Assembly: GCF_011320095.1 (NCBI RefSeq)
Contig: NZ_JAANOY010000022.1
Location: forward strand, 1-32,679
Length of the DNA stretch: 32,679 nt
Direction: 5' to 3'
DNA from: Cognatiluteimonas telluris
GTDB lineage: Bacteria; Pseudomonadota; Gammaproteobacteria; Xanthomonadales; Xanthomonadaceae
The position numbers were made by a program, and so were the translations under genes. Positions 17,771-26,562 of this stretch are shown one piece after another (within the stretch, counting starts at the first letter, position 1; each line of letters begins with the position of its first letter). Under the pieces are notes generated by a model that had not been told where the DNA came from, did no database searches, and saw only the letters and a list, made by a program, of their open reading frames with translations.

Positions 17771-18766
17771 TCAGCGCGTCATTCTCGATTCAAGAAAGAC
17801 GCTTTCCCGATGGAATGCCAAATAGGACCTCTGGCCTTCGGAAAAGCCCCCTACGTTGCGCCGAAGTGCATCCTCAAGCCCCATTCGGTGAAGCGACTCA
17901 CGATGGGCTACGGGCGAAACCAAAACAGTCCCGTTGTCTTCGAAGCTAATGAAACCGCGATCAAACAGATGATCGACATCCGGCGTGAGCAGCAACCCAT
18001 TCTCGCCATCCAGGCGTTCGGTGTTGCTCGCATCCCGCCACGGCTTGCAATGGCTCGCCCGCAAATGCTCGATCTGATCAACTTGCGTGACGCGGCAATT
18101 GGATTCGATTCGCTGGACGTTCTGTTTAAACAAGCCCTGCCCTCGACGTGCCATGACGACTGCCTGACGGGTAGTCTCCGGAATCGTCTGATCAGCGATC
18201 ACTTGTTCCATCTCGTGGGTTTCCCACTCCACGAGGCCGATGGCCACCGGTGCGTTGTCGAGATCTCTAAGGCGTCGCATCTCGATGATCGTACGAGCCT
18301 CCCGACCGATGAGGTCGGCAAGCGTAATCGCGAAGTCGTCCGGCAACCGGGTAAGGTAAACGCCTTGCAAACCACTGCCATTTTGCTGCAGCGGTGCATA
18401 TCGATCCGGAAGTCGCGGCGCGAGTTGCGCCATGTGCTCCGCCGGCTTGAGTGGACCGTGTAGCTCCGTGAAGCGAACATCGACGCGCCACCCAATGTTG
18501 TCCCAATAAGCACCCGTTTGCCCGAACTCGCGCGGTTTGGGAGCCTCGTAAGCATGGGAAGCGGCAATGCCGATCGCTTTGATGTAAGTGTCTGAAAAGG
18601 AGAACACCACATCACCCGGAGCGACTTCACGCATGAAGTCATAGAACGGATTGCGAGTCCCGTTCGAGTGGCGATCGCTGGTCCGATTGCGTTTTGGCGA
18701 CCACAGATAGCCGCCCGGGACCTCGTGGCGGTACGTCTGGTTCTGATTTACCCACCAGTAGCGCAT
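17771..18766 (-). CDS. EVE-like/HNH endonuclease, predicted modification-dependent restriction enzyme
   Basis: The 331-residue protein opens with an EVE/PUA-like domain (MRYWWVNQNQTYRHEV, GGYLWSPK, then NPFYDFMREVAPGDVVFSF; residues 1-140). The C-terminal HNH_2-type nuclease (about 200-290) shows Cys224, RASHCKPW with His239, NGLLL with Asn256, and DHLFDRGFISF with His266. EVE-like domains read modified cytosines, and EVE-HNH fusions are associated with restriction of phages with modified DNA, so this is a likely type IV-like defence enzyme. ATG 18766 is preferred to a TTG at 18787 because the family opening begins there. The gene lies at the left end of the island and needs no partner gene. 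Confidence 0.85.
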   Translation of the reverse strand: MRYWWVNQNQTYRHEVPGGYLWSPKRNRTSDRHSNGTRNPFYDFMREVAPGDVVFSFSDTYIKAIGIAASHAYEAPKPREFGQTGAYWDNIGWRVDVRFTELHGPLKPAEHMAQLAPRLPDRYAPLQQNGSGLQGVYLTRLPDDFAITLADLIGREARTIIEMRRLRDLDNAPVAIGLVEWETHEMEQVIADQTIPETTRQAVVMARRGQGLFKQNVQRIESNCRVTQVDQIEHLRASHCKPWRDASNTERLDGENGLLLTPDVDHLFDRGFISFEDNGTVLVSPVAHRESLHRMGLEDALRRNVGGFSEGQRSYLAFHRESVFLESRMTR

Positions 18767-18810
18767 GGACACATCATGCCTGGTCAACCTGCGCCATGCA
18801 TCCAGTCTTG

Positions 18811-18906: not shown

Positions 18907-19842
18907 TCAAAGCGAAGTGTCGGCGACCACGGGATTCCCGACGTTAGTAATGATCGGAGCAACTCTAAGCAGGCGCCCCAAAGTCAATGTGTGGTACTTC
19001 ACGCAGAAGGTTTCCATCGCGAACAAGTACGACGTACCAGTACGATCTTTGATCACGACTTCGTTGGAACCAAGAGGACCTACTCGCTGATAACCGCAAT
19101 AGGACCGAATTAGGCCCCATACCTGAGCTTCGTCCACGTTTTCAAATTGATCAGCGAACGTCCCTGACCTAATGAAGTGTTCAACAGGCAGTGCGGTCGC
19201 TTGACCATATCGCGGATGGCCGCTGATCAACCCAAAGTCAGAATTTTCGCTGCTTTCCACACACCGCCAGAGCGTGCTCGTAATAGTGTTTCCAAACTCC
19301 TTGGCGAGCTTCCGAACCAAGACAAGCGAGAGCTGCTCTGATCTGCGACTTTCATGGAAAGCCACAGGCGGGAATAGAAGCTGTCCCGCGCCATAGTTCG
19401 CCTCAGCCTCAATTCGTTCGTGACAGGATGGCGACAACGTTGCGCCATCGTCGCCAAACATATAATCCGCGTGCCAGGGAATCAGGCTATGCGACACCTC
19501 GTGAGATTCGCTCCAACGCTTTTTTAGATCAGGCGTCTTGCCATCAATGAAGATTCGCTTCTGATCCGGCACGAACAAGGCCTTTAGATCGAACTTGCGC
19601 ACCGCCTCTATCAGGAGGGATGGGCGCTCAAAGACTTGCTTAGCACCGATACGAAGCCGATGAACGACTCCGTCAAGAACGCTGGGGTCGTCGAGCTGGT
19701 AATACCTGAGATCCAGACGAAGTAAATCACGGACCTCGGCGAGTTCGACTTTTCCGCTCTTGTATGCGAGGTCGCGGTGGACCTTTCCCACTTGGGCATC
19801 GATGTCGTTTCTCGTTCGATGGTCCAGCAGGATATTTCGCAC
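18907..19842 (-). CDS. ImmA/IrrE family metallopeptidase
   Basis: The 311-residue protein carries the zinc-peptidase motif SHEVSH (His114, Glu115, His118) and the downstream IEAEANYGAGQLLFP segment that gives the third ligand in this family. ImmA/IrrE peptidases cut HTH repressors (ImmA of ICEBs1 cuts ImmR) or act as the toxin-like partner of an XRE antitoxin. The upstream HTH gene ends 2 bases before this GTG start, so the peptidase/regulator pair is complete. The C-terminal ~110 residues have no motif I recognise. It is the last gene of the four-gene minus-strand operon. Confidence 0.85.
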   Translation of the reverse strand: MRNILLDHRTRNDIDAQVGKVHRDLAYKSGKVELAEVRDLLRLDLRYYQLDDPSVLDGVVHRLRIGAKQVFERPSLLIEAVRKFDLKALFVPDQKRIFIDGKTPDLKKRWSESHEVSHSLIPWHADYMFGDDGATLSPSCHERIEAEANYGAGQLLFPPVAFHESRRSEQLSLVLVRKLAKEFGNTITSTLWRCVESSENSDFGLISGHPRYGQATALPVEHFIRSGTFADQFENVDEAQVWGLIRSYCGYQRVGPLGSNEVVIKDRTGTSYLFAMETFCVKYHTLTLGRLLRVAPIITNVGNPVVADTSL

Positions 19843-19844
19843 GC

Positions 19845-20330
19845 CTATCGATCTTCCGAAAGCGCCGCCACTAGTGCGCGAACGACGTCGAACTCGCTTA
19901 CGGTGCCCACGTCAACGCGCCTTGAGTTTGCAGCAAACCGCATTCCAGTCCCGTGCGAAGGATTTAGATCGGATTTGTGCTGCGCGAGAGATATGAACTT
20001 CGATCTAGAAAAATGACAAACGTCTGCCAACATCGCCACAGTTCGAGGCGGCGGATCATAGTCGGGCGAAGTTTCTATGTTCGTCACTTCGAACTCGTCG
20101 ATATTTGCAAGATTGGCTATATCACTGCGAGTCCAGCCCCTGCTCTCGCGGACGTATCTCACAACCTTACCGAGATCAGTCGGAACCTCTGAGAGTACCG
20201 CTGGAGTAACCGCTCTCTGGCTTACTTCCTTATCTAAGTCGGCCAATGACGTGCCTCCAGCACCAGCGTAAGCATCATCACAATGAGCAAGCTTGTTAGC
20301 TAGCCACTGCCGTGTAATTACGAGCTTCAT
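19845..20330 (-). CDS. HTH protein paired with the ImmA/IrrE peptidase
   Basis: The 161-residue protein has an XRE-like helix-turn-helix at about residues 53-107 (LGKVVRYVRESRGWTRSDIANLANIDEF, read in parts). Flanking it are an N-terminal helical region (MKLVITRQWLANKLAH) and a C-terminal tail. ATG 20330 was chosen because GGAGGA sits 7 bases upstream, inside the last codons of the GNAT gene; an in-frame start at 20363 would overlap that gene. It is probably the DNA-binding partner and the cleavage target of the downstream peptidase. Confidence 0.8.
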   Translation of the reverse strand: MKLVITRQWLANKLAHCDDAYAGAGGTSLADLDKEVSQRAVTPAVLSEVPTDLGKVVRYVRESRGWTRSDIANLANIDEFEVTNIETSPDYDPPPRTVAMLADVCHFSRSKFISLAQHKSDLNPSHGTGMRFAANSRRVDVGTVSEFDVVRALVAALSEDR

Positions 20331-20334
20331 AGCT

Positions 20335-20946
20335 CTATCCTCCAGCGATAAACGAGCCGACATTTGCCTCGTCCAACTCGTAGTACTTCAAGTTTTGTGT
20401 GTCGGGGTCATGATTCATCGGACTCAGGCCGAGGCATTCGTAAAAACGTTCCGACTTCGGAAGGGAATGGAGCCCGATCCTGCCCTTGAAGCCGACGTCG
20501 ATACTCACCTGCACAGCAGCGCGCATGAGAACAGTGCCCACACCACGGAACCTTGAGCCAAATTCCGGAAGATTCCAAGGAGCCGTAGCGAGGTAACGCA
20601 CGTACACCAAGGACTTCGACTCATGGCCCGGCAGCCGACAGCGACGACCGTCCGTGAGAAGGGCCATCATTCCCTGTTTTTCGCCTTGATACGTGATAGC
20701 CAACGTCGGCATCGAGATCAAGTTTCCTGAGCGTTCGACCTTAGCTTCCCAGTTCCAACCCTCGGGTTCGGCCGTGGGGATAGCGAGGCCCGAATCTCTT
20801 GCGAAATCCTGCGCCGCACGCACATGTGCCGCCCAGGCGCTGTCAGCTTCGCGGGCAAAGTCGATGTCGATTCGCTCGAACAGCAGCGCATCGATATAAG
20901 CGCCGTTCTTGCAATCCAAGAGCGGAACAACGATGCCGTCTGTCAT
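20335..20946 (-). CDS. GNAT family N-acetyltransferase
   Basis: The 203-residue protein has a GNAT core in its second half: LVYVRYLATAPWN (beta4), the acetyl-CoA loop RFRGVGTVLMRAA (residues 132-144, R-x-x-G-x-G pattern), and SERFYECLGL (165-174). The first ~75 residues are not typical. Its ATG overlaps the TGA of a ribbon-helix-helix gene. RHH-GNAT pairs such as AtaR-AtaT and TacA-TacT are toxin-antitoxin modules in which the enzyme acetylates aminoacyl-tRNA, so a toxin role is possible. The protein is longer than those toxins (about 160-175 residues), so another substrate is also possible. Confidence 0.78.
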   Translation of the reverse strand: MTDGIVVPLLDCKNGAYIDALLFERIDIDFAREADSAWAAHVRAAQDFARDSGLAIPTAEPEGWNWEAKVERSGNLISMPTLAITYQGEKQGMMALLTDGRRCRLPGHESKSLVYVRYLATAPWNLPEFGSRFRGVGTVLMRAAVQVSIDVGFKGRIGLHSLPKSERFYECLGLSPMNHDPDTQNLKYYELDEANVGSFIAGG

Positions 20947-21155
20947 AGCACAACAAGCTCGCGCTTCTCTTTGGAAATTTCATCTTCCAAAAACAACTTC
21001 TCGCCTGCGCGAATTCGGCCGTCCACCAACTGGTATAGCCGCAGCGCCTGCCGCATGACATGCGTCTTCGACATGTCCTTTTGAGTCGACAGCTCCTCCA
21101 ACACCGCCATTTCTGAGTCGGTGAGATTGAGCGTCATTGTTCGCTTCGGATTCAT
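20943..21155 (-). CDS. Ribbon-helix-helix (CopG/Arc-type) regulator
   Basis: The 70-residue protein has a beta-strand (RTMTLNLT), helix A (DSEMAVLEELSTQ) and helix B (SKTHVMRQALRLYQLV), which is the ribbon-helix-helix plan. A charged C-terminal tail could bind a partner. GGGAG upstream supports the ATG at 21155. It is the first gene of the operon and divergent from the ubiquitin-like cassette. It probably binds the TAGCTA repeats in the shared intergenic region and may act as antitoxin to the GNAT protein. Confidence 0.82.
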   Translation of the reverse strand: MNPKRTMTLNLTDSEMAVLEELSTQKDMSKTHVMRQALRLYQLVDGRIRAGEKLFLEDEISKEKRELVVL

Positions 21156-21184
21156 AGCATCTCCCTGAGCAAACCATACGCCAT

Positions 21185-21236
21185 CTAGCTAGTTATGGCA
21201 ATAAAACTTGCTTGCGTTTTAGCTATCATATAGCTA
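21185..21236. promoter_or_regulatory. Divergent control region with three TAGCTA palindromes
   Basis: TAGCTA occurs at 21186-21191 (within CTAGCTAG), 21220-21225 and 21231-21236; the last two are separated by 5 bases. The region is AT-rich and lies between the divergent RHH and Ubl genes. Ribbon-helix-helix dimers commonly bind such short palindromes in tandem, so this is a candidate operator for both directions. No clean -35/-10 pair could be fixed. Confidence 0.6.
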
Positions 21237-21273
21237 TCGTTCGCTCACCACTCGTTCGTAAGGAGTCGCCAAA

Positions 21274-21537
21274 ATGTCTGTAAACGCCGCAAACCATCCG
21301 CATAATCAATCAGTTATCCCAATTTTCATCGATGGGGAGAAGTACGACGCCGCGAGCCATCAGATGTCCGGCCACGACCTTAGGGGCCTCGTTCCCGTTG
21401 CAGCGGACCGCGACCTGTGGCTCGAAGTCCCTGGTCCTTCTGACGACGTTCCGATCAAGGAAAGCGTCGTTTATGAAGTCAAGTCAGGAGCTCACTTTTA
21501 CACCGCACCAAGCACCATCAACCCCGGGACTAACTGA
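21274..21537 (+). CDS. Ubiquitin-like protein of the multiubiquitin family (single domain)
   Basis: The 87-residue protein has one beta-grasp-like domain of the type annotated as Multiubiquitin: PIFIDGEKYD, then SGHDLRGL, then HFYTAPSTINPG at the end. Family members usually carry two or more such domains in tandem; here there is one. The chain ends NPG-Thr-Asn, so Gly85 would be exposed only after removal of two residues, probably by the JAB protease of the third gene. AAGGAG eight bases upstream fixes the start. It is the first gene of the conjugation cassette, 1 base before the E2-like gene. It is the likely modifier attached to targets. Confidence 0.88.
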   Translation: MSVNAANHPHNQSVIPIFIDGEKYDAASHQMSGHDLRGLVPVAADRDLWLEVPGPSDDVPIKESVVYEVKSGAHFYTAPSTINPGTN

Positions 21538-21538
21538 A

Positions 21539-21928
21539 ATGAAGCTGCCCTCGCGCGATCAAGCGTTTCTAGATGATCGAGGGTATGACTGGGAGTTGTT
21601 GTCCGAGTCCGCGGGCGGCTACTTGATTGTTCGCAACTTCGACGTCACTGGCGGCGGCTTCGCGCCGTCGCCGGTGACGTTGATGATTCGAATTCCCCCG
21701 CAGTTCCCTATGACTCCGCTTGATATGTGGTACTGCAACCCGCCAATTCGAATTGCAGAGTCAGGCCACTTCGCCCCTGCTTCTGAGGTGATGGAGTCCC
21801 ACGTTGGGAAGAACTGGCAACGCTTCTCGAGACATCTAAATGGCGGTTGGAGACCTGGAGTGGATGGCCTCAGATCGTTCTTCGTTCTGATTCAACGAGA
21901 GCTACAGGGATTGGGTTCAACCAAATGA
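21539..21928 (+). CDS. E2/UBC-like protein, prokaryotic family E type
   Basis: The 129-residue protein has the E2-like order: a beta-meander (GGYLIVRNFDV), IPPQFPMTPLDMWYCNPPI (matching the YPxxPP strand of E2 enzymes), then NWQRFSRHLNGGWRPGVDGLRSFF, where W104 and the next helix align with the W-S-P region that follows the catalytic Cys in eukaryotic E2s. At the position of that Cys this protein has F-S-R-H (96-99). Its only cysteine is Cys66, in the central strand. It follows the Ubl stop by one base and overlaps the E1 start as ATGA. Transfer chemistry through Ser97 or His99, rather than Cys, is inference. Confidence 0.82.
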   Translation: MKLPSRDQAFLDDRGYDWELLSESAGGYLIVRNFDVTGGGFAPSPVTLMIRIPPQFPMTPLDMWYCNPPIRIAESGHFAPASEVMESHVGKNWQRFSRHLNGGWRPGVDGLRSFFVLIQRELQGLGSTK

Positions 21929-23271
21929 AAACGCTCGTCATGACCGAGGCACAACTTGAGTTGCTCCGGCAGCACGTCTTTGATCAGCCCGGGCTTGAAG
22001 GCGCTGCATTCCTGCTCTGCGGGCAGTCAATGTCAGATGAAAGCGCCAAGCTAATTGTTCATGCGGTGATGCCAATCGACGCGGCCGATTTTGACGAACG
22101 GCGACGCGACGGTCTCGTAATTAAGTCCTCAGCTCTCACCCGCATCGCAAAGCTGGCCAGAAACGAGGGCCTCTCTATTGTATTTGTCCATTCCCACCCC
22201 GATGGGGCTGACGATTTTTCGGCGCAGGATGACCGGGAAGAAGGCCGACTGATTCCCTTCCTGCAAGCTCGTGTTCCTGGAAAAATTCATGGGACGCTGG
22301 TTCTAACGAAGAACTCTATTGTTGGGCGCTTGTATATGCCGGATCGACAAGCCCTCGACAAGACCATTGCGGTCGGATCGCGCATTCGGTGTTGGAGGGC
22401 GACATCGCAAGTGCAGAGTGACTTCCTTGACCGCCAGATTCGTGCCTTTGGAAAAGATATTCAGTCGGCGTTGAGTTGTCTCCACATCGGGATTGTTGGC
22501 CTGGGTGGCACCGGTTCTCCCGTAGCAGAGCAGCTTGCGCGGCTGGGTGTGGGGATGATTTCGCTCTTCGACGGCGACACTCTTGAGGCATCCAATCTCA
22601 ACCGAGTACAAGGCTCGCATCGAGCTGACGTGGGGCTTTACAAGGTTGATATCGCCAAACGCAATATCGAGAAGATGGGACTTGGAACAGTCGTTCGCGC
22701 GATTCCTGAGCACATTACGACTGAAAGAAGCGCTCTAGCCTTGCGTGAATGCGACATTGTTTTCGGCTGCACTGATAAGCAGCGACCGCGAGCGATCTTG
22801 GGATGCCTTTGTGTAGCGTACTCAATTCCAGTCTTTGACATGGGCGTGCTAATCGATTCGCTCGGCGGACAAATTATCGGCGTGCACGGCAGGGTTACTA
22901 CTCTTCTCCCAGGGGAAGCTTGCCTCTTTTGTCGAGGTCGAATTTCGGTCGAAGGAATGCGACTCGAGACACTGTCCGCTGCAGAGCGCGCCGGTCAGGC
23001 GAGAGAAGGCTACGCGCCGGAGCTGGAGCAGCCTGCGCCCGCCGTCGTCACGTTCACAACCGCAATTGCCGCACTAGCAGTTACAGAGCTGCTCCACCGA
23101 TTGACTGGATTCAAAGGAGCGGACCGGCAATCGTCCGAACTTCTCGTGGCATTTGATCAGTCTCGGATGCGGACAAATCGCTTCGAGCCTCATGAGGAGT
23201 GCAGCTGCAACGATCAAGCGCGATGGGGTCGCGGCGACGAGGAGCCCTTCTTAGGCTTGGCTTGGGGCTAG
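21925..23271 (+). CDS. JAB protease-E1 (ThiF) fusion
   Basis: In this 448-residue protein, residues 1-145 form a JAB/JAMM metalloprotease domain: Glu25 and HSHPDGADDFSAQD (His89, His91, Ser99, Asp102), a complete motif. Residues about 165-420 form a ThiF/MoeB/E1-type adenylation domain: GLGGTGS (192-198), LFDGD with Asp218, NLNR (224-227), Lys240, and GCTD with Asp284. Cys333/Cys336 (CLFC) and Cys426/Cys428 (CSC) look like the zinc site. No cysteine lies in the crossover region 337-425, where MoeB/ThiF/E1 relatives carry the thioester Cys. It should adenylate the Ubl C-terminus and trim or remove the Ubl. Confidence 0.9.
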   Translation: MKTLVMTEAQLELLRQHVFDQPGLEGAAFLLCGQSMSDESAKLIVHAVMPIDAADFDERRRDGLVIKSSALTRIAKLARNEGLSIVFVHSHPDGADDFSAQDDREEGRLIPFLQARVPGKIHGTLVLTKNSIVGRLYMPDRQALDKTIAVGSRIRCWRATSQVQSDFLDRQIRAFGKDIQSALSCLHIGIVGLGGTGSPVAEQLARLGVGMISLFDGDTLEASNLNRVQGSHRADVGLYKVDIAKRNIEKMGLGTVVRAIPEHITTERSALALRECDIVFGCTDKQRPRAILGCLCVAYSIPVFDMGVLIDSLGGQIIGVHGRVTTLLPGEACLFCRGRISVEGMRLETLSAAERAGQAREGYAPELEQPAPAVVTFTTAIAALAVTELLHRLTGFKGADRQSSELLVAFDQSRMRTNRFEPHEECSCNDQARWGRGDEEPFLGLAWG

Positions 23272-23663
23272 TCTTCGCACCAAATGATTCGAGAATCCCG
23301 AAGAAAAAAGTGAGCTCCGCAGTGCTTCGCGTCGATTGATGGCGCAATCGAGATGAGGCCGCCTGTACTGAGCTTCACGGTCCAGCGGGGCGAGCGGCTT
23401 GCCATTAAGTTCAGCTGAAGTTGTTCCTTGCAGCCGCAAGGGCACTTCAGATAAGCCCACTTGAGGGCGCCGGGGTTCACCAGCGCAACCACGCCCTTTT
23501 CATAGGCCGCCGCCTCGGCATCCTCCCGACGCTCAAAGCTCACAAATCGGTAGCGCCACCGCTTGGAGGCATTCCTGTATACGTATTTCGCGAATTGTTC
23601 GCGAAGGCTGAGGAGCCAAGCAGGAATTCGAGAGTGACTAGCCATCCGCGCATTCTGGGGCAT
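23268..23663 (-). CDS. DUF6527 protein, convergent partner of the Ubl cassette
   Basis: The 131-residue protein carries the DUF6527 pattern: LKCPCGCKEQLQL (Cys74, Cys76, Cys78), W94, an ISIAPSI block (about 104-110), and HCGAHFFLRDSRIIW (Cys115, His118). The Cys/His set suggests a metal site. Genes of this family are, to my recollection, found beside Ubl/E2/E1 operons, and a peptidase role has been suggested. The stop codon interlocks with that of the E1 in the four bases CTAG (23268-23271), so the genes are tail to tail. The start is 23663 or the second ATG at 23645; no strong ribosome-binding site marks either. Confidence 0.8.
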   Translation of the reverse strand: MPQNARMASHSRIPAWLLSLREQFAKYVYRNASKRWRYRFVSFERREDAEAAAYEKGVVALVNPGALKWAYLKCPCGCKEQLQLNLMASRSPRWTVKLSTGGLISIAPSIDAKHCGAHFFLRDSRIIWCED

Positions 23664-23874
23664 AGACCGATGAGATGAGTCCTATCGCATGTCCGGTCGG
23701 ATGTCGTCAACTTATCCGCCGAGGTGGGAACTCGCAATGCCGCAGAAACGGCAAGCCCTGGTCAAGAATTGACCTAGCTCGAGCCGCCACCGGAAGAAAA
23801 GCAGAATTACGAAGCTCGACAGAATTCAAGCTGCATCCCCGAGGCCGACGTTCTACTCGTTTCATTGCCGAGGA
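23664..23874. other. Spacer between the island and aceE
   Basis: The spacer is 211 bases long and holds no convincing gene. No tRNA, integrase or clear direct repeat marks it as an attachment site. It separates the less GC-rich island from the aceE stop codon. Confidence 0.5.
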
Positions 23875-26562
23875 TCAAACCCCAATCGGAGTCGCCTTCC
23901 CCTCATCAATCCGATAAAGCTTCATCGCCCGCGCCACATCCTTCCCACTCATCTTCCCATCCGCCACCAGCGCAGCCACCGCCGCATGCGCAATATGGTT
24001 GCGGTCGACTTCGAAGTGCCGCCGCAGGTTCTCGCGCGTATCCGAGCGCCCGAAGCCATCCGTCCCCAGCACCGTGTACCGCATCGGCACGAACCCGCGG
24101 ATCTGTTCGGGGTACGCACGGATGTAATCGGTGGCGACGATCGCCGGGCCCTGGCGGCCTTCGAGCAGTTGGGTGACGTAGGGCTTGCGTTGTTCGGACT
24201 CGGGGTGGAAGCGGTTGAAGCGTTCGGCATCGACGCCGTCGCGCGCGAGTTCGTTGAAGCTCGGGCAGGACCAGATGTCGGCCTTGATGCCGAAATCCTT
24301 GTCGAGCAGGTCGGCCGCGGCGATCGCTTCGCGCAGGATCGTGCCACTGCCGAGCAACTGCACCCGCAACTCGCCCTTCTTCGCCTTTCCGCCATCGCGG
24401 AACAGGTACATGCCCTTGATGATGCCGTCGGCCGCGCCTTCGGGCATGTCCGGGTGGGCGTAGTTCTCGTTCATCAGGGTGAGGTAGAAGTACTCGTCGC
24501 GCTGCTCGGTGAGCATGCGTTGCATGCCGTACTGCAGCAGCACGGCGACTTCGTAGCTGAAGGTCGGATCAAAGCTGCGGCAGTTGGGGATGAGGCCGGC
24601 CTGGACCATGCTCTGGCCGTCCTCGTGCTGCAGGCCTTCGCCGTTGAGCGTGGTGCGGCCGGCGGTGGCGCCGAGCAGGAAGCCGCGCGAGCGCATGTCC
24701 GCCGCCTGCCAGGCGCTGTCGCCGATGCGCTGGAAGCCGAACATCGAGTAGTAGATGTAGAACGGGATCAGCTGCAGATCGTTGGTGCTGTAGCTCGTCG
24801 CGCACGCCATCCACGAGGAGAACGCGCCGGCCTCGGTGATGCCTTCCTCCAGCACCTGGCCGGTGGCGTCCTCGCGGTAGTACATGAGCTGGTCGCGGTC
24901 GACCGGCTTGTACTTCTGCCCGTGCGGGGCGTAGATGCCGAGCTGGCGGAACATGCCTTCCATGCCGAAGGTGCGCGCTTCATCCGCAACGATCGGAACG
25001 CAGCGCGGGCCGACCTGCTTGTCGCGCAGGGTGATGTTGAGTGCCTGCACGAACGCCATCGTGGTGCTGATCTCGCGATCGCCGGTGGTCTTGAGCAGGC
25101 GCTCGTAGACCTCGAGCTTCGGCGCTTCGAGCGATTGCGATGACTTGCGCCGGCGCTGCGGCAGGTAACCGCCGAGGGCCTTGCGGCGCTCGTGCATGTA
25201 TTCGACTTCCGGCGACTTCTCGCCGGGATGGAAGAACGGCACCTTGCCGTCGGCCAGCTGCGCGTCGGTGATCGGGATCTGGAAGCGGTCGCGGAACGTG
25301 CGCACGTCCTCGTCGTCCATCTTCTTGGTGCCGTGGGTGGGGTTGAGCGCCTCGCCCGCCGCGCCCATGCCGTAGCCCTTGACCGTCTTGGCGAGGATCA
25401 CGGTCGGCTGGCCGGTGGTCTTCACCGCGGCGTCGTAGGCGGCGTAGACCTTGTGCGGATCGTGACCACCGCGGTTGAGGCGCCAGATGTCGTCGTCGGA
25501 GAGATTCGCGACGAGCGCGGCGGTCTCGGGATACTTGCCGAAGAAGTTCTCGCGCGTGTACTTGCCGCCGAAGGCCTTGCAGTTCTGGTATTCGCCGTCG
25601 ACGGTTTCCATCATCAGCTGGCGCAGCTTGCCGGTGGTGTCGCGCGCGAGCAGCGGATCCCAGTACGTGCCCCAGATGGTCTTGATGACGTTCCAGCCGG
25701 CGCCGCGGAAGTTGCCTTCCAGCTCCTGGATGATCTTGCCGTTGCCGCGCACCGGGCCGTCAAGGCGCTGCAGGTTGCAGTTGACGACGAAGATGAGGTT
25801 GTCGAGGCCTTCGCGGCCGGCCACCGAAATCGCGCCGAGCGATTCGGGCTCGTCGGTTTCGCCGTCGCCGAGGAAACACCACACCTTGCGCCCGGTCTTG
25901 GGCATCAGGCCGCGGCCTTCGAGGTACTTCCAGTTGCGCGCCTGGTAGATCGCGGCGAGCGGGCCGAGGCCCATCGACACCGTGGGCGTCTGCCAATAGT
26001 CGGGCATCAGCCACGGATGGGGATACGAGCTGACGCCGCGGCCGTCGACTTCCATGCGGAAGTGGTCGAGCTGCGATTCGCTGATGCGGCCTTCGAGGAA
26101 CGAGCGCGCGTAGATGCCGGGCGAGGAATGGCCCTGGATGTAGAGCAGGTCGCCGGGGAAGTCCTCGGTCGGCGCGCGCCAGAAATGGTTGAAGCCGACG
26201 TCGTAGAGCGTCGCACCGGAAGCGAACGAGGCGATGTGGCCACCGAGTTCGCCCGGCTTGCGGTTGGCGCGCACGACCATCGCCATCGCGTTCCAGCGGA
26301 TCAGCGAGCGGATGCGCCACTCCATGTTGGAGTCGCCGGGCATCTGCGGCTCCTGCCCGGCGGGAATGGTGTTGACGTATTCGGTGGTCGGCGAGAACGG
26401 CAGGTGCGCGCCGGCGCGACGGGTGAGCTCGACCATGCCTTCGAGCAGCTGGTGCGCGCGCTGCGGGCCGCCGTTGTCGATGACGGCCTTGAGCGACTCG
26501 ATCCACTCGCGGGTTTCGGTGGGATCCGGGTCGTTGAGCAGCAGTTCGTTGAGCCAGGTCAT
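23875..26562 (-). CDS. aceE: Pyruvate dehydrogenase E1 component, homodimeric type
   Basis: The 895-residue protein is close in length to E. coli AceE (887). It is the thiamine-diphosphate-dependent subunit that decarboxylates pyruvate and passes the acetyl group to lipoyl-E2. The TPP motif runs from GDGETDEPES (Gly232-Asp233-Gly234) to NCN (261-263). Other family blocks include EYVNTIPAGQEPQMPGD, GHSSPGIYARSFLEGR and DEARTFGMEGMFRQLGIY. GGAG just upstream supports ATG 26562. The E2 and E3 genes are not adjacent; the defence island lies downstream. A perfect palindrome lies about 90 bases upstream. Confidence 0.98.
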   Translation of the reverse strand: MTWLNELLLNDPDPTETREWIESLKAVIDNGGPQRAHQLLEGMVELTRRAGAHLPFSPTTEYVNTIPAGQEPQMPGDSNMEWRIRSLIRWNAMAMVVRANRKPGELGGHIASFASGATLYDVGFNHFWRAPTEDFPGDLLYIQGHSSPGIYARSFLEGRISESQLDHFRMEVDGRGVSSYPHPWLMPDYWQTPTVSMGLGPLAAIYQARNWKYLEGRGLMPKTGRKVWCFLGDGETDEPESLGAISVAGREGLDNLIFVVNCNLQRLDGPVRGNGKIIQELEGNFRGAGWNVIKTIWGTYWDPLLARDTTGKLRQLMMETVDGEYQNCKAFGGKYTRENFFGKYPETAALVANLSDDDIWRLNRGGHDPHKVYAAYDAAVKTTGQPTVILAKTVKGYGMGAAGEALNPTHGTKKMDDEDVRTFRDRFQIPITDAQLADGKVPFFHPGEKSPEVEYMHERRKALGGYLPQRRRKSSQSLEAPKLEVYERLLKTTGDREISTTMAFVQALNITLRDKQVGPRCVPIVADEARTFGMEGMFRQLGIYAPHGQKYKPVDRDQLMYYREDATGQVLEEGITEAGAFSSWMACATSYSTNDLQLIPFYIYYSMFGFQRIGDSAWQAADMRSRGFLLGATAGRTTLNGEGLQHEDGQSMVQAGLIPNCRSFDPTFSYEVAVLLQYGMQRMLTEQRDEYFYLTLMNENYAHPDMPEGAADGIIKGMYLFRDGGKAKKGELRVQLLGSGTILREAIAAADLLDKDFGIKADIWSCPSFNELARDGVDAERFNRFHPESEQRKPYVTQLLEGRQGPAIVATDYIRAYPEQIRGFVPMRYTVLGTDGFGRSDTRENLRRHFEVDRNHIAHAAVAALVADGKMSGKDVARAMKLYRIDEGKATPIGV

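What the first reader, a model, noticed from the sequence alone, without database searches (positions are those of the whole stretch)
21274..23663. Four-gene ubiquitin-like conjugation cassette in a defence island
Seen: Ubl (multiubiquitin type), E2-like, JAB-E1 fusion and DUF6527, with 1-base, ATGA and CTAG junctions. Known: related bacterial Ubl operons (CBASS Cap2/Cap3, BilABCD, the Bub-type systems) act in phage defence or modify proteins. Inferred: this cassette conjugates its single-domain Ubl to targets and reverses that with the JAB, with DUF6527 as an additional processing or removal factor. A single-domain Ubl with a two-residue tail and a JAB fused to the E1 makes a minimal, self-contained version.
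Basis: partly seen in the sequence, partly recalled or inferred. Interest (0 to 1): 0.9.

Follow-up and report, generated by a model that had tools for sequence, protein, structure and literature searches.

The report
Bacterial ubiquitin-like operon with portable controller
The reported genes are a member of a recently described bacterial ubiquitin-like (Bub) tagging system, and the unreported part is a four-gene block next to it, with its own DNA repeat, that turns up in front of several different defence operons and looks like a reusable on-switch.

Summary
In detail: Ubl 21274-21537, E2 21539-21928, JAB-E1 21925-23271 on +; DUF6527 23268-23663 on minus, convergent, so not in the same operon. 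It is a Bub operon: JAB-E1 matches Citrobacter BubCD (2.3e-40), the E2 BubB (1.1e-11), the Ubl profile and model multi-ubiquitin proteins. One Ubl domain (53 of 65 PG-ending hits), a short tail after a conserved Gly and the JAB-E1 fusion are ordinary for the family. Phage defence is not shown. I found all four families in 25 loci, facing Bub (15), variant ThiF/Ubl operons (4), CBASS (3), other or unclear (3). Between block and operon lies a TAGCTA-N5-TAGCTA pair (at most one mismatch, in one copy) in 20 of 25; in 0 of 67 Bub loci without the block; once in the 2.86-Mb host genome. Best reading: a Bub pathway under a portable controller that adds an RHH-GNAT pair to CapH+CapP. Regulation and conjugation are inferred, not measured.

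The parts
21274..21537 (+). Ubl (BubA-like), 87 aa, one beta-grasp domain ending INPG, then TN; probably trimmed after Gly85 (inference)
21539..21928 (+). E2-like (BubB-like), Prok-E2_E; keeps Q94, R95, S97, R98, H99; its one Cys (66) is not conserved
21925..23271 (+). JAB-E1 fusion (BubCD-like): JAMM E25, H89, H91, S99, D102; GLGGTGS; C282; C333/C336 and C426/C428
23268..23663 (-). DUF6527 protein, convergent; C74, P75, P92, W94, P108, S109, H118, W128 in 74 of 74 rows
21156..21273 (.). 118-bp region shared by the two divergent operons, GC 0.449
21220..21236 (.). TAGCTA-N5-TAGCTA, operator-like 11-bp repeat; the only one in the held host genome at up to 1 mismatch
21186..21191 (.). third TAGCTA, inside the spacer of a promoter-like site TTGCCA-17-TATGGT (21201..21173, minus) of the divergent block (1 found, 0.2 expected in shuffles)
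20943..21155 (-). RHH (CopG-like) protein, 70 aa; first gene of the divergent block
20335..20946 (-). GNAT-like protein, 203 aa, overlaps the RHH gene by 4 bases; GNAT match is weak for the window (0.03) and clear for L009 and L014
19845..20363 (-). HTH protein in CapH position; the start may be internal (Met12)
18907..19842 (-). M78/IrrE-like peptidase with HExxH; CapP-like

Best explanation
A Bub pathway, probably acquired horizontally, under a divergent four-gene controller. Shown by sequence: BubA/BubB/BubCD homologues plus DUF6527; a block RHH-GNAT-HTH-M78 that recurs as a set in front of Bub, variant ThiF/Ubl operons and CBASS; an 11-bp-phased TAGCTA repeat between block and operon that goes with the RHH+GNAT block. 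Inferred: the RHH protein binds the repeat and represses both divergent promoters; the CapP-like peptidase, activated by ssDNA from phage replication or DNA damage, cleaves the HTH repressor and releases the operon; the GNAT forms a toxin-antitoxin-like pair with the RHH. Once expressed, the JAB trims the Ubl tail to Gly85, the E1 activates Gly85, and with the E2-like protein Ubl is joined to targets; the JAB, perhaps with DUF6527, removes it.
For: Bub. Catalytic residues over the ungapped rows: E25 74/74, H89 73/74, H91 74/74, S99 74/74, D102 74/74, C282 75/75. Gly with tail: 65 of 75 Ubl hits end in PG, 63 of these 65 with 1-26 further residues; 4 hits ending in TEG run straight into E2. Block: RHH and GNAT found in the same 9 of 76 loci, each with HTH and M78 (those loci were not gathered by block genes); 14 of 15 plasmid loci picked by M78 match; L110, L111. 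Portability: the block label needs 5 changes on an E1 tree of 82; the 3 CBASS-linked blocks form one clade within a 13-row group that is otherwise Bub-linked but for L096. M78: PADLOC capP in 9 of 9; solved IrrE 1.3e-7, CapP 0.0011. Repeat: 18 of 23 loci plus L110 and L111; 0 of 67 Bub loci without the block; once in the host genome at up to 1 mismatch; exact form in none of 99 other genomes searched. L081, L083, L095 (HTH+M78 beside Bub, no RHH/GNAT) have no pair.
Against: No activity or regulation was measured. The motif was chosen after looking at these loci. Five block loci (L009, L018, L074, L094, L096) have no scoring pair. The window HTH does not match the capH model; 5 of 9 members do. 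17 viral loci with RHH relatives show none of the other three families and no pair. 50 viral stretches with a triple repeat encode no RHH of this family, so the repeat alone is not diagnostic. Several plasmid loci are near-copies (L087/L090, L091/L098), so the 25 are not independent. Five changes on the tree may mix gains and losses. E2 Cys66 is not conserved; position 28 is Cys in 45 of 76 but Tyr in the window. Bub has no demonstrated anti-phage effect (PMC13373217).
Confidence: 0.6

Rival explanations
1. The RHH-GNAT pair is a toxin-antitoxin or addiction unit that travels with CapH+CapP in defence islands; the TAGCTA repeat only autoregulates that pair, and the Ubl operon is controlled by CapH+CapP alone.
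For: RHH precedes and overlaps GNAT, as GNAT toxins are encoded with RHH antitoxins (PMC9431474, two passages); one TAGCTA sits in the spacer of the block's own promoter-like site; RHH relatives occur without the block in viral loci.
Against: Where the pair of repeats is present it lies in the region shared with the divergent operon, and the same set faces Bub, CBASS and other operons. The GNAT profile has no PDB match at E<=0.01 and the window RHH no DUF1778 match at E<=1.
Confidence: 0.25
2. The TAGCTA repeat is the binding site of the HTH (CapH-like) protein, not of the RHH.
For: An HTH gene is present in all 25 blocks; RHH relatives in 17 viral loci have no pair.
Against: The HTH is the more variable protein (24-54% to the window against 59-75% for RHH); L081, L083 and L095, with HTH+M78 but no RHH/GNAT, have no pair.
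Confidence: 0.15
3. The cassette is a sulfur-carrier or small-molecule pathway of the ThiS/MoaD-ThiF kind rather than protein conjugation.
For: ThiF-type E1; no Cys conserved across the E2 family.
Against: Homology to BubCD, BubB and multi-ubiquitin proteins.
Confidence: 0.05

Closest known systems
Bub (bacterial ubiquitination-like) operons; Citrobacter BubA, BubB, BubCD
   Same: Multi-ubiquitin type Ubl, Prok-E2_E E2, JAB-E1 fusion; JAMM, adenylation and QRxSRH residues
   Different: One Ubl domain ending in PG plus a short tail; CxxC in the E1 where the aligned Citrobacter protein has none; DUF6527 convergent
CapH+CapP (CapP peptidase activated by ssDNA cleaves repressor CapH; Lau et al. 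2022 as cited in PMC13373217)
   Same: HTH plus M78 genes beside an immune operon; M78 matches the capP model in 9 of 9 members
   Different: Preceded by RHH and GNAT genes and a TAGCTA repeat; the window HTH does not match the capH model
GNAT-RHH type II toxin-antitoxin pairs (PMC9431474; names TacAT, AtaT, KacAT partly from recall)
   Same: RHH gene followed by an overlapping GNAT gene
   Different: CopG-like rather than DUF1778 RHH; GNAT profile without PDB match; the gene set goes on with HTH and M78
CapK+CapS controllers (PMC13373217)
   Same: Regulatory genes shared by Bub, CBASS and other immune operons
   Different: Other proteins: a kinase and a STAS-wHTH repressor

Membership tests
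Bub operon | Multi-ubiquitin type beta-grasp Ubl | tested here: met
   By profile and model; the single window sequence has no direct Pfam hit
Bub operon | BubB-type E2 (Prok-E2_E) | tested here: met
Bub operon | BubCD-type JAB-E1 with JAMM and adenylation motifs | tested here: met
Bub operon | Conjugation of Ubl to protein targets | not testable with these tools
   needs biochemistry
CapH+CapP | M78 peptidase with HExxH, related to CapP/IrrE | tested here: met
CapH+CapP | HTH partner matching CapH | tested here: inconclusive
   capH model matched by 5 of 9 members at E<=0.01, not by the window member
CapH+CapP | Location beside an immune operon | tested here: met
CapH+CapP | ssDNA-activated cleavage of the repressor | not testable with these tools
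   needs biochemistry
GNAT-RHH toxin-antitoxin | RHH gene directly before a GNAT gene | tested here: met
GNAT-RHH toxin-antitoxin | Sequence kinship to solved GNAT toxins or DUF1778 antitoxins | tested here: not met
   No PDB match of the GNAT profile at E<=0.01 (that GNAT toxins are in the PDB is recalled); no DUF1778 match; RHH profile finds CopG
GNAT-RHH toxin-antitoxin | Toxicity neutralised by the RHH | not testable with these tools
   needs a growth assay

The most novel reading that the evidence does not exclude
A portable four-gene controller (RHH repressor, GNAT enzyme, CapH-like repressor, CapP-like protease) with its own 11-bp-phased TAGCTA operator is swapped between unrelated bacterial immune operons (Bub, variant ThiF/Ubl operons, CBASS), giving them two inputs: ssDNA through the protease, and a second signal through an RHH-GNAT switch that may also arrest growth.
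Probability: 0.4. Interest if true: 0.7.

Novelty: new variant of a known kind. Interest (0 to 1): 0.5.

Why it matters
The conjugation cassette adds one more member to a described family. [quoted passage not shown] It would also tie an acetyltransferase to the control of ubiquitin-like tagging and CBASS, a role I know of nowhere else.

Tried and rejected
Rejected: that the two-residue tail or the single Ubl domain is unusual. Rejected: that the E2 works through a Cys conserved in the family; window Cys66 is Cys in 11 of 76, and position 28, Cys in 45 of 76, is Tyr in the window. Led nowhere: sequence and fold search for DUF6527 (best Foldseek E 0.59); genome-contig scan with JAB-E1 alone (32 stretches, no relative); phage records (17 records, none covering 80% of the query); the repeat as a finder of new block loci in viral contigs (0 of 50 stretches with an RHH of this family); three cyanobacterial plasmids with GNAT relatives (none of the other three families). 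Not examined: 13 of 29 plasmid records with an M78 match, most of the 51 with a GNAT match, the 8 weak GNAT matches, and 4 of the 12 aceE loci.

Papers not read: the Bub mechanism paper (doi 10.1038/s41594-025-01696-1), the bacterial Ubl structure paper and Chambers 2024 are not held; Lau 2022 was not asked for by id and did not show in the search listings. I therefore state neither the published Bub chemistry nor what those papers say of DUF6527 or of the block. Print check for RHH+GNAT with CapH+CapP: searches (12 papers listed; 0; 6), seen as listings; main text of PMC13373217 searched for acetyltransferase, GNAT and ribbon, 0 uses; DUF6527 named in 0 papers held. Supplements were not searched.

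Full report
Observation. The four genes and their junctions are as reported. Ubl, E2 and JAB-E1 run on the + strand with a 1-base gap and an ATGA overlap; the DUF6527 gene is on the minus strand and meets JAB-E1 tail to tail over CTAG. So the cassette is a three-gene run plus a convergent gene. In the 74 loci where both were found, DUF6527 is on the strand of JAB-E1 in 68 and opposite in 6: the window, L009, L014, L015, L019, L020.

Identity. JAB-E1 matches solved Citrobacter BubCD over residues 4-445 at 2.3e-40 and the E2 matches BubB at 1.1e-11. The window Ubl alone matches no Pfam, NCBIfam or PADLOC model at E<=1. Its family does: 40 of 43 aligned members match Multi_ubiq at E<=0.01, the window member not among them, and the profile hits 9cd2 at 1.1e-10 and 8u38 (BilA) at 2.4e-5. 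An AlphaFold2 model (43 sequences, pLDDT 87.9) has bacterial multi-ubiquitin structures as its eight best PDB matches and the BubCD-BubA complex 9ea8 at rank 10, E 6.5e-3. This is a Bub operon. PF14462 was found in 7 of 199 relatives, the window's genome included, and a JAB-E1 match in 324 plasmid records, 131 of them over at least 80% of the query.

Conservation. The survey set is 76 loci: the window and L008-L083 without L049. They were gathered by E2 or JAB-E1 likeness, so the presence of those two in 76 of 76 is partly by construction; DUF6527 was found in 74 and a Ubl in 73. Ungapped rows: JAMM E25 74/74, H89 73/74, H91 74/74, S99 74/74, D102 74/74; E1 G192, G195, G197 and C282 75/75; C333 and C336 71/75. 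The E2 keeps Q94 74/74, R95 74/74, S97 74/75, R98 74/74, H99 75/75. Its one Cys in the window, C66, is Cys in 11 of 76; position 28 is Cys in 45 of 76 but Tyr in the window. A Cys thioester on E2 is thus not a general feature; S97 or H99 are candidates for catalysis (inference). DUF6527 keeps C74, P75, P92, W94, P108, S109, H118 and W128 in 74 of 74; its model (46 sequences, pLDDT 90.0) has no PDB match at E<=0.001, best 0.59. Its role stays open.

Ubl tail. Of 75 Ubl hits, 65 end their domain in PG and 63 of those carry 1 to 26 further residues; two residues is the commonest length (21 of 65). 53 of the 65 have one detected domain and 12 have two. Four hits end in TEG directly before E2 in one frame; three free ones end at TEG; the other three end otherwise. 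This fits trimming or release by the JAB (inference) and makes the window's tail and single domain ordinary.

The missed block. Upstream and divergent lie RHH (20943-21155), GNAT-like (20335-20946), HTH (19845-20363) and M78 peptidase (18907-19842), all on the minus strand and close together. In the 76 loci RHH and GNAT each hit 9, the same 9 (window, L009, L014-L018, L074, L082), all with HTH and M78; HTH alone hit 20 and M78 12, the extra ones weakly. Of 29 plasmid records with an M78 match I looked at 16: L082 and L084-L098. Among L084-L098, 14 of 15 hold all four families and L095 lacks RHH and GNAT. The GNAT profile matched 11 of 398 genomes of the phylum at E<=0.001, only 3 of them strongly, and 2 of 385 of a class at 1e-12; L111 and L110 from these hold all four families, L112 the GNAT alone. 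In the 25 complete blocks the divergent partner is Bub in 15 (window, L009, L014-L018, L074, L082, L085, L087, L088, L090, L091, L098); a variant ThiF/Ubl operon in 4 (L089 and L094 by annotation, with no Ubl hit in L094; L097 and L111 partly read by eye); CBASS by annotation in 3 (L084, L086, L092); other or unclear in 3 (L093; L096, where an ISL3 transposase gene precedes the block; L110, a short piece).

Portability. On a tree of 82 E1 proteins the block label needs 5 changes, and well-supported branches force 5; these may mix gains and losses. L018, L077 and L089 were dropped for short matches, and L096, which has a block beside its Bub, was not labelled. On a GNAT+M78 tree of 24 blocks (midpoint root, two long rows L017 and L018) the three CBASS-linked blocks form one clade (100/99) inside a 13-row group (99/99) that is otherwise Bub-linked but for L096. 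The block thus seems to join different operons rather than to be inherited with one.

Operator-like repeats. The region between block and operon holds TAGCTA copies 11 bp apart, noticed by eye and then scored. A pair (at most 1 mismatch per copy, at least one copy perfect) is present in 18 of 23 block loci; dinucleotide shuffles expect 0 to 0.003 per locus; distances between sites peak at 11 (28), 22 (13) and 33 (9). L110 and L111 also have one. Misses: L009, L018, L074, L094, L096. Upstream of the Ubl (or E2) frame in the 67 loci without the block there is no pair, and a single perfect copy in 4. In the held host genome the pair at up to 1 mismatch occurs once, at 21220-21236, while the reversed control pattern occurs 7 times per strand. 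The exact pair is in 1 of 100 genomes searched, the window's own; the block-bearing G045 (L009) lacks it. Of 132 loci then held the exact pair was in 14, all block loci, three of them copies of the window. L081, L083 and L095, with HTH and M78 genes but no RHH/GNAT beside Bub, have none. Since RHH is the most conserved of the four proteins (59-75% to the window) and the repeat follows RHH+GNAT, RHH is the likeliest binder (inference). Against this: 17 viral loci with RHH relatives have no pair, and 50 viral stretches with a triple repeat have no such RHH.

Mechanism. From PMC13373217 (passages): CapP is activated by ssDNA and cleaves CapH; 219 of 544 Bub operons have CapW or CapH+CapP; Bub has not been demonstrated to protect against phage. 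The window M78 keeps HExxH; the capP model matches 9 of 9 aligned members; the profile hits Deinococcus IrrE at 1.3e-7 and CapP at 0.0011. The HTH is less sure: 5 of 9 members match capH, the window one does not. I infer derepression by ssDNA, with RHH as a second repressor and GNAT as its partner. GNAT toxins with RHH antitoxins are known (PMC9431474, two passages), but this GNAT profile finds no PDB entry at E<=0.01 and the RHH profile finds CopG at 0.0014.

Context. The window's genome is in the family of G096, whose contig matches in length the Pseudoxanthomonas sp. z9 record of L049 (inference). The island has GC 0.54-0.57 against 0.66-0.70 around it and lies at the 3' end of aceE (PDH E1). 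Of 12 aceE loci fetched I compared 8 relatives, 7 of the genus: in 7 the 1.5 kb there shows no island gene, and one (L124) has an HNH homologue at 41%. It looks like a variable site.

Verdict. The reported cassette is a new member of Bub. The further finding, a four-gene controller with its own repeat, is a new variant of the known immune-operon controllers; in the searches named under Tried and rejected I found no paper that describes it.

Noticed in passing
window 17771-18787 (-): HNH endonuclease (HNH_2 7.7e-9; PADLOC HNH 2e-19) at the island's other end; a 41% homologue lies beside aceE in a genus relative (L124).
   Followed up: partly
window 23664-23875 and L122-L129: The 3' side of aceE looks like a variable site: 1 of 8 relatives compared has an island gene there, 7 do not.
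   Followed up: partly
L080 and L092 (one Methylocystis plasmid): One plasmid holds a Bub operon faced by Fic, a small gene and a DUF6290 gene, and a CBASS operon faced by the RHH-GNAT-HTH-M78 block.
   Followed up: no
L096 1314-9935: Jiella plasmid with the block preceded by an ISL3 transposase gene, next to a Bub operon that has its own HTH+M78 pair.
   Followed up: no
L113-L115: Three cyanobacterial plasmids carry relatives of the GNAT without the other three families.
   Followed up: partly
L133-L149: RHH relatives occur in 17 viral loci without GNAT, HTH or M78 of the block.
   Followed up: partly
L012, L013, L074, L079, L082, L085, L087, L088, L090, L091, L098: Ubl and E2 hits in one open frame; in L013, L074, L079 and L082 the Ubl ends in TEG directly before E2, a possible internal cleavage site.
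   Followed up: partly
L090 6076-7701: Annotated anti-phage dCTP deaminase gene directly beside the block in Rhizobium sp. CIAT894.
   Followed up: no
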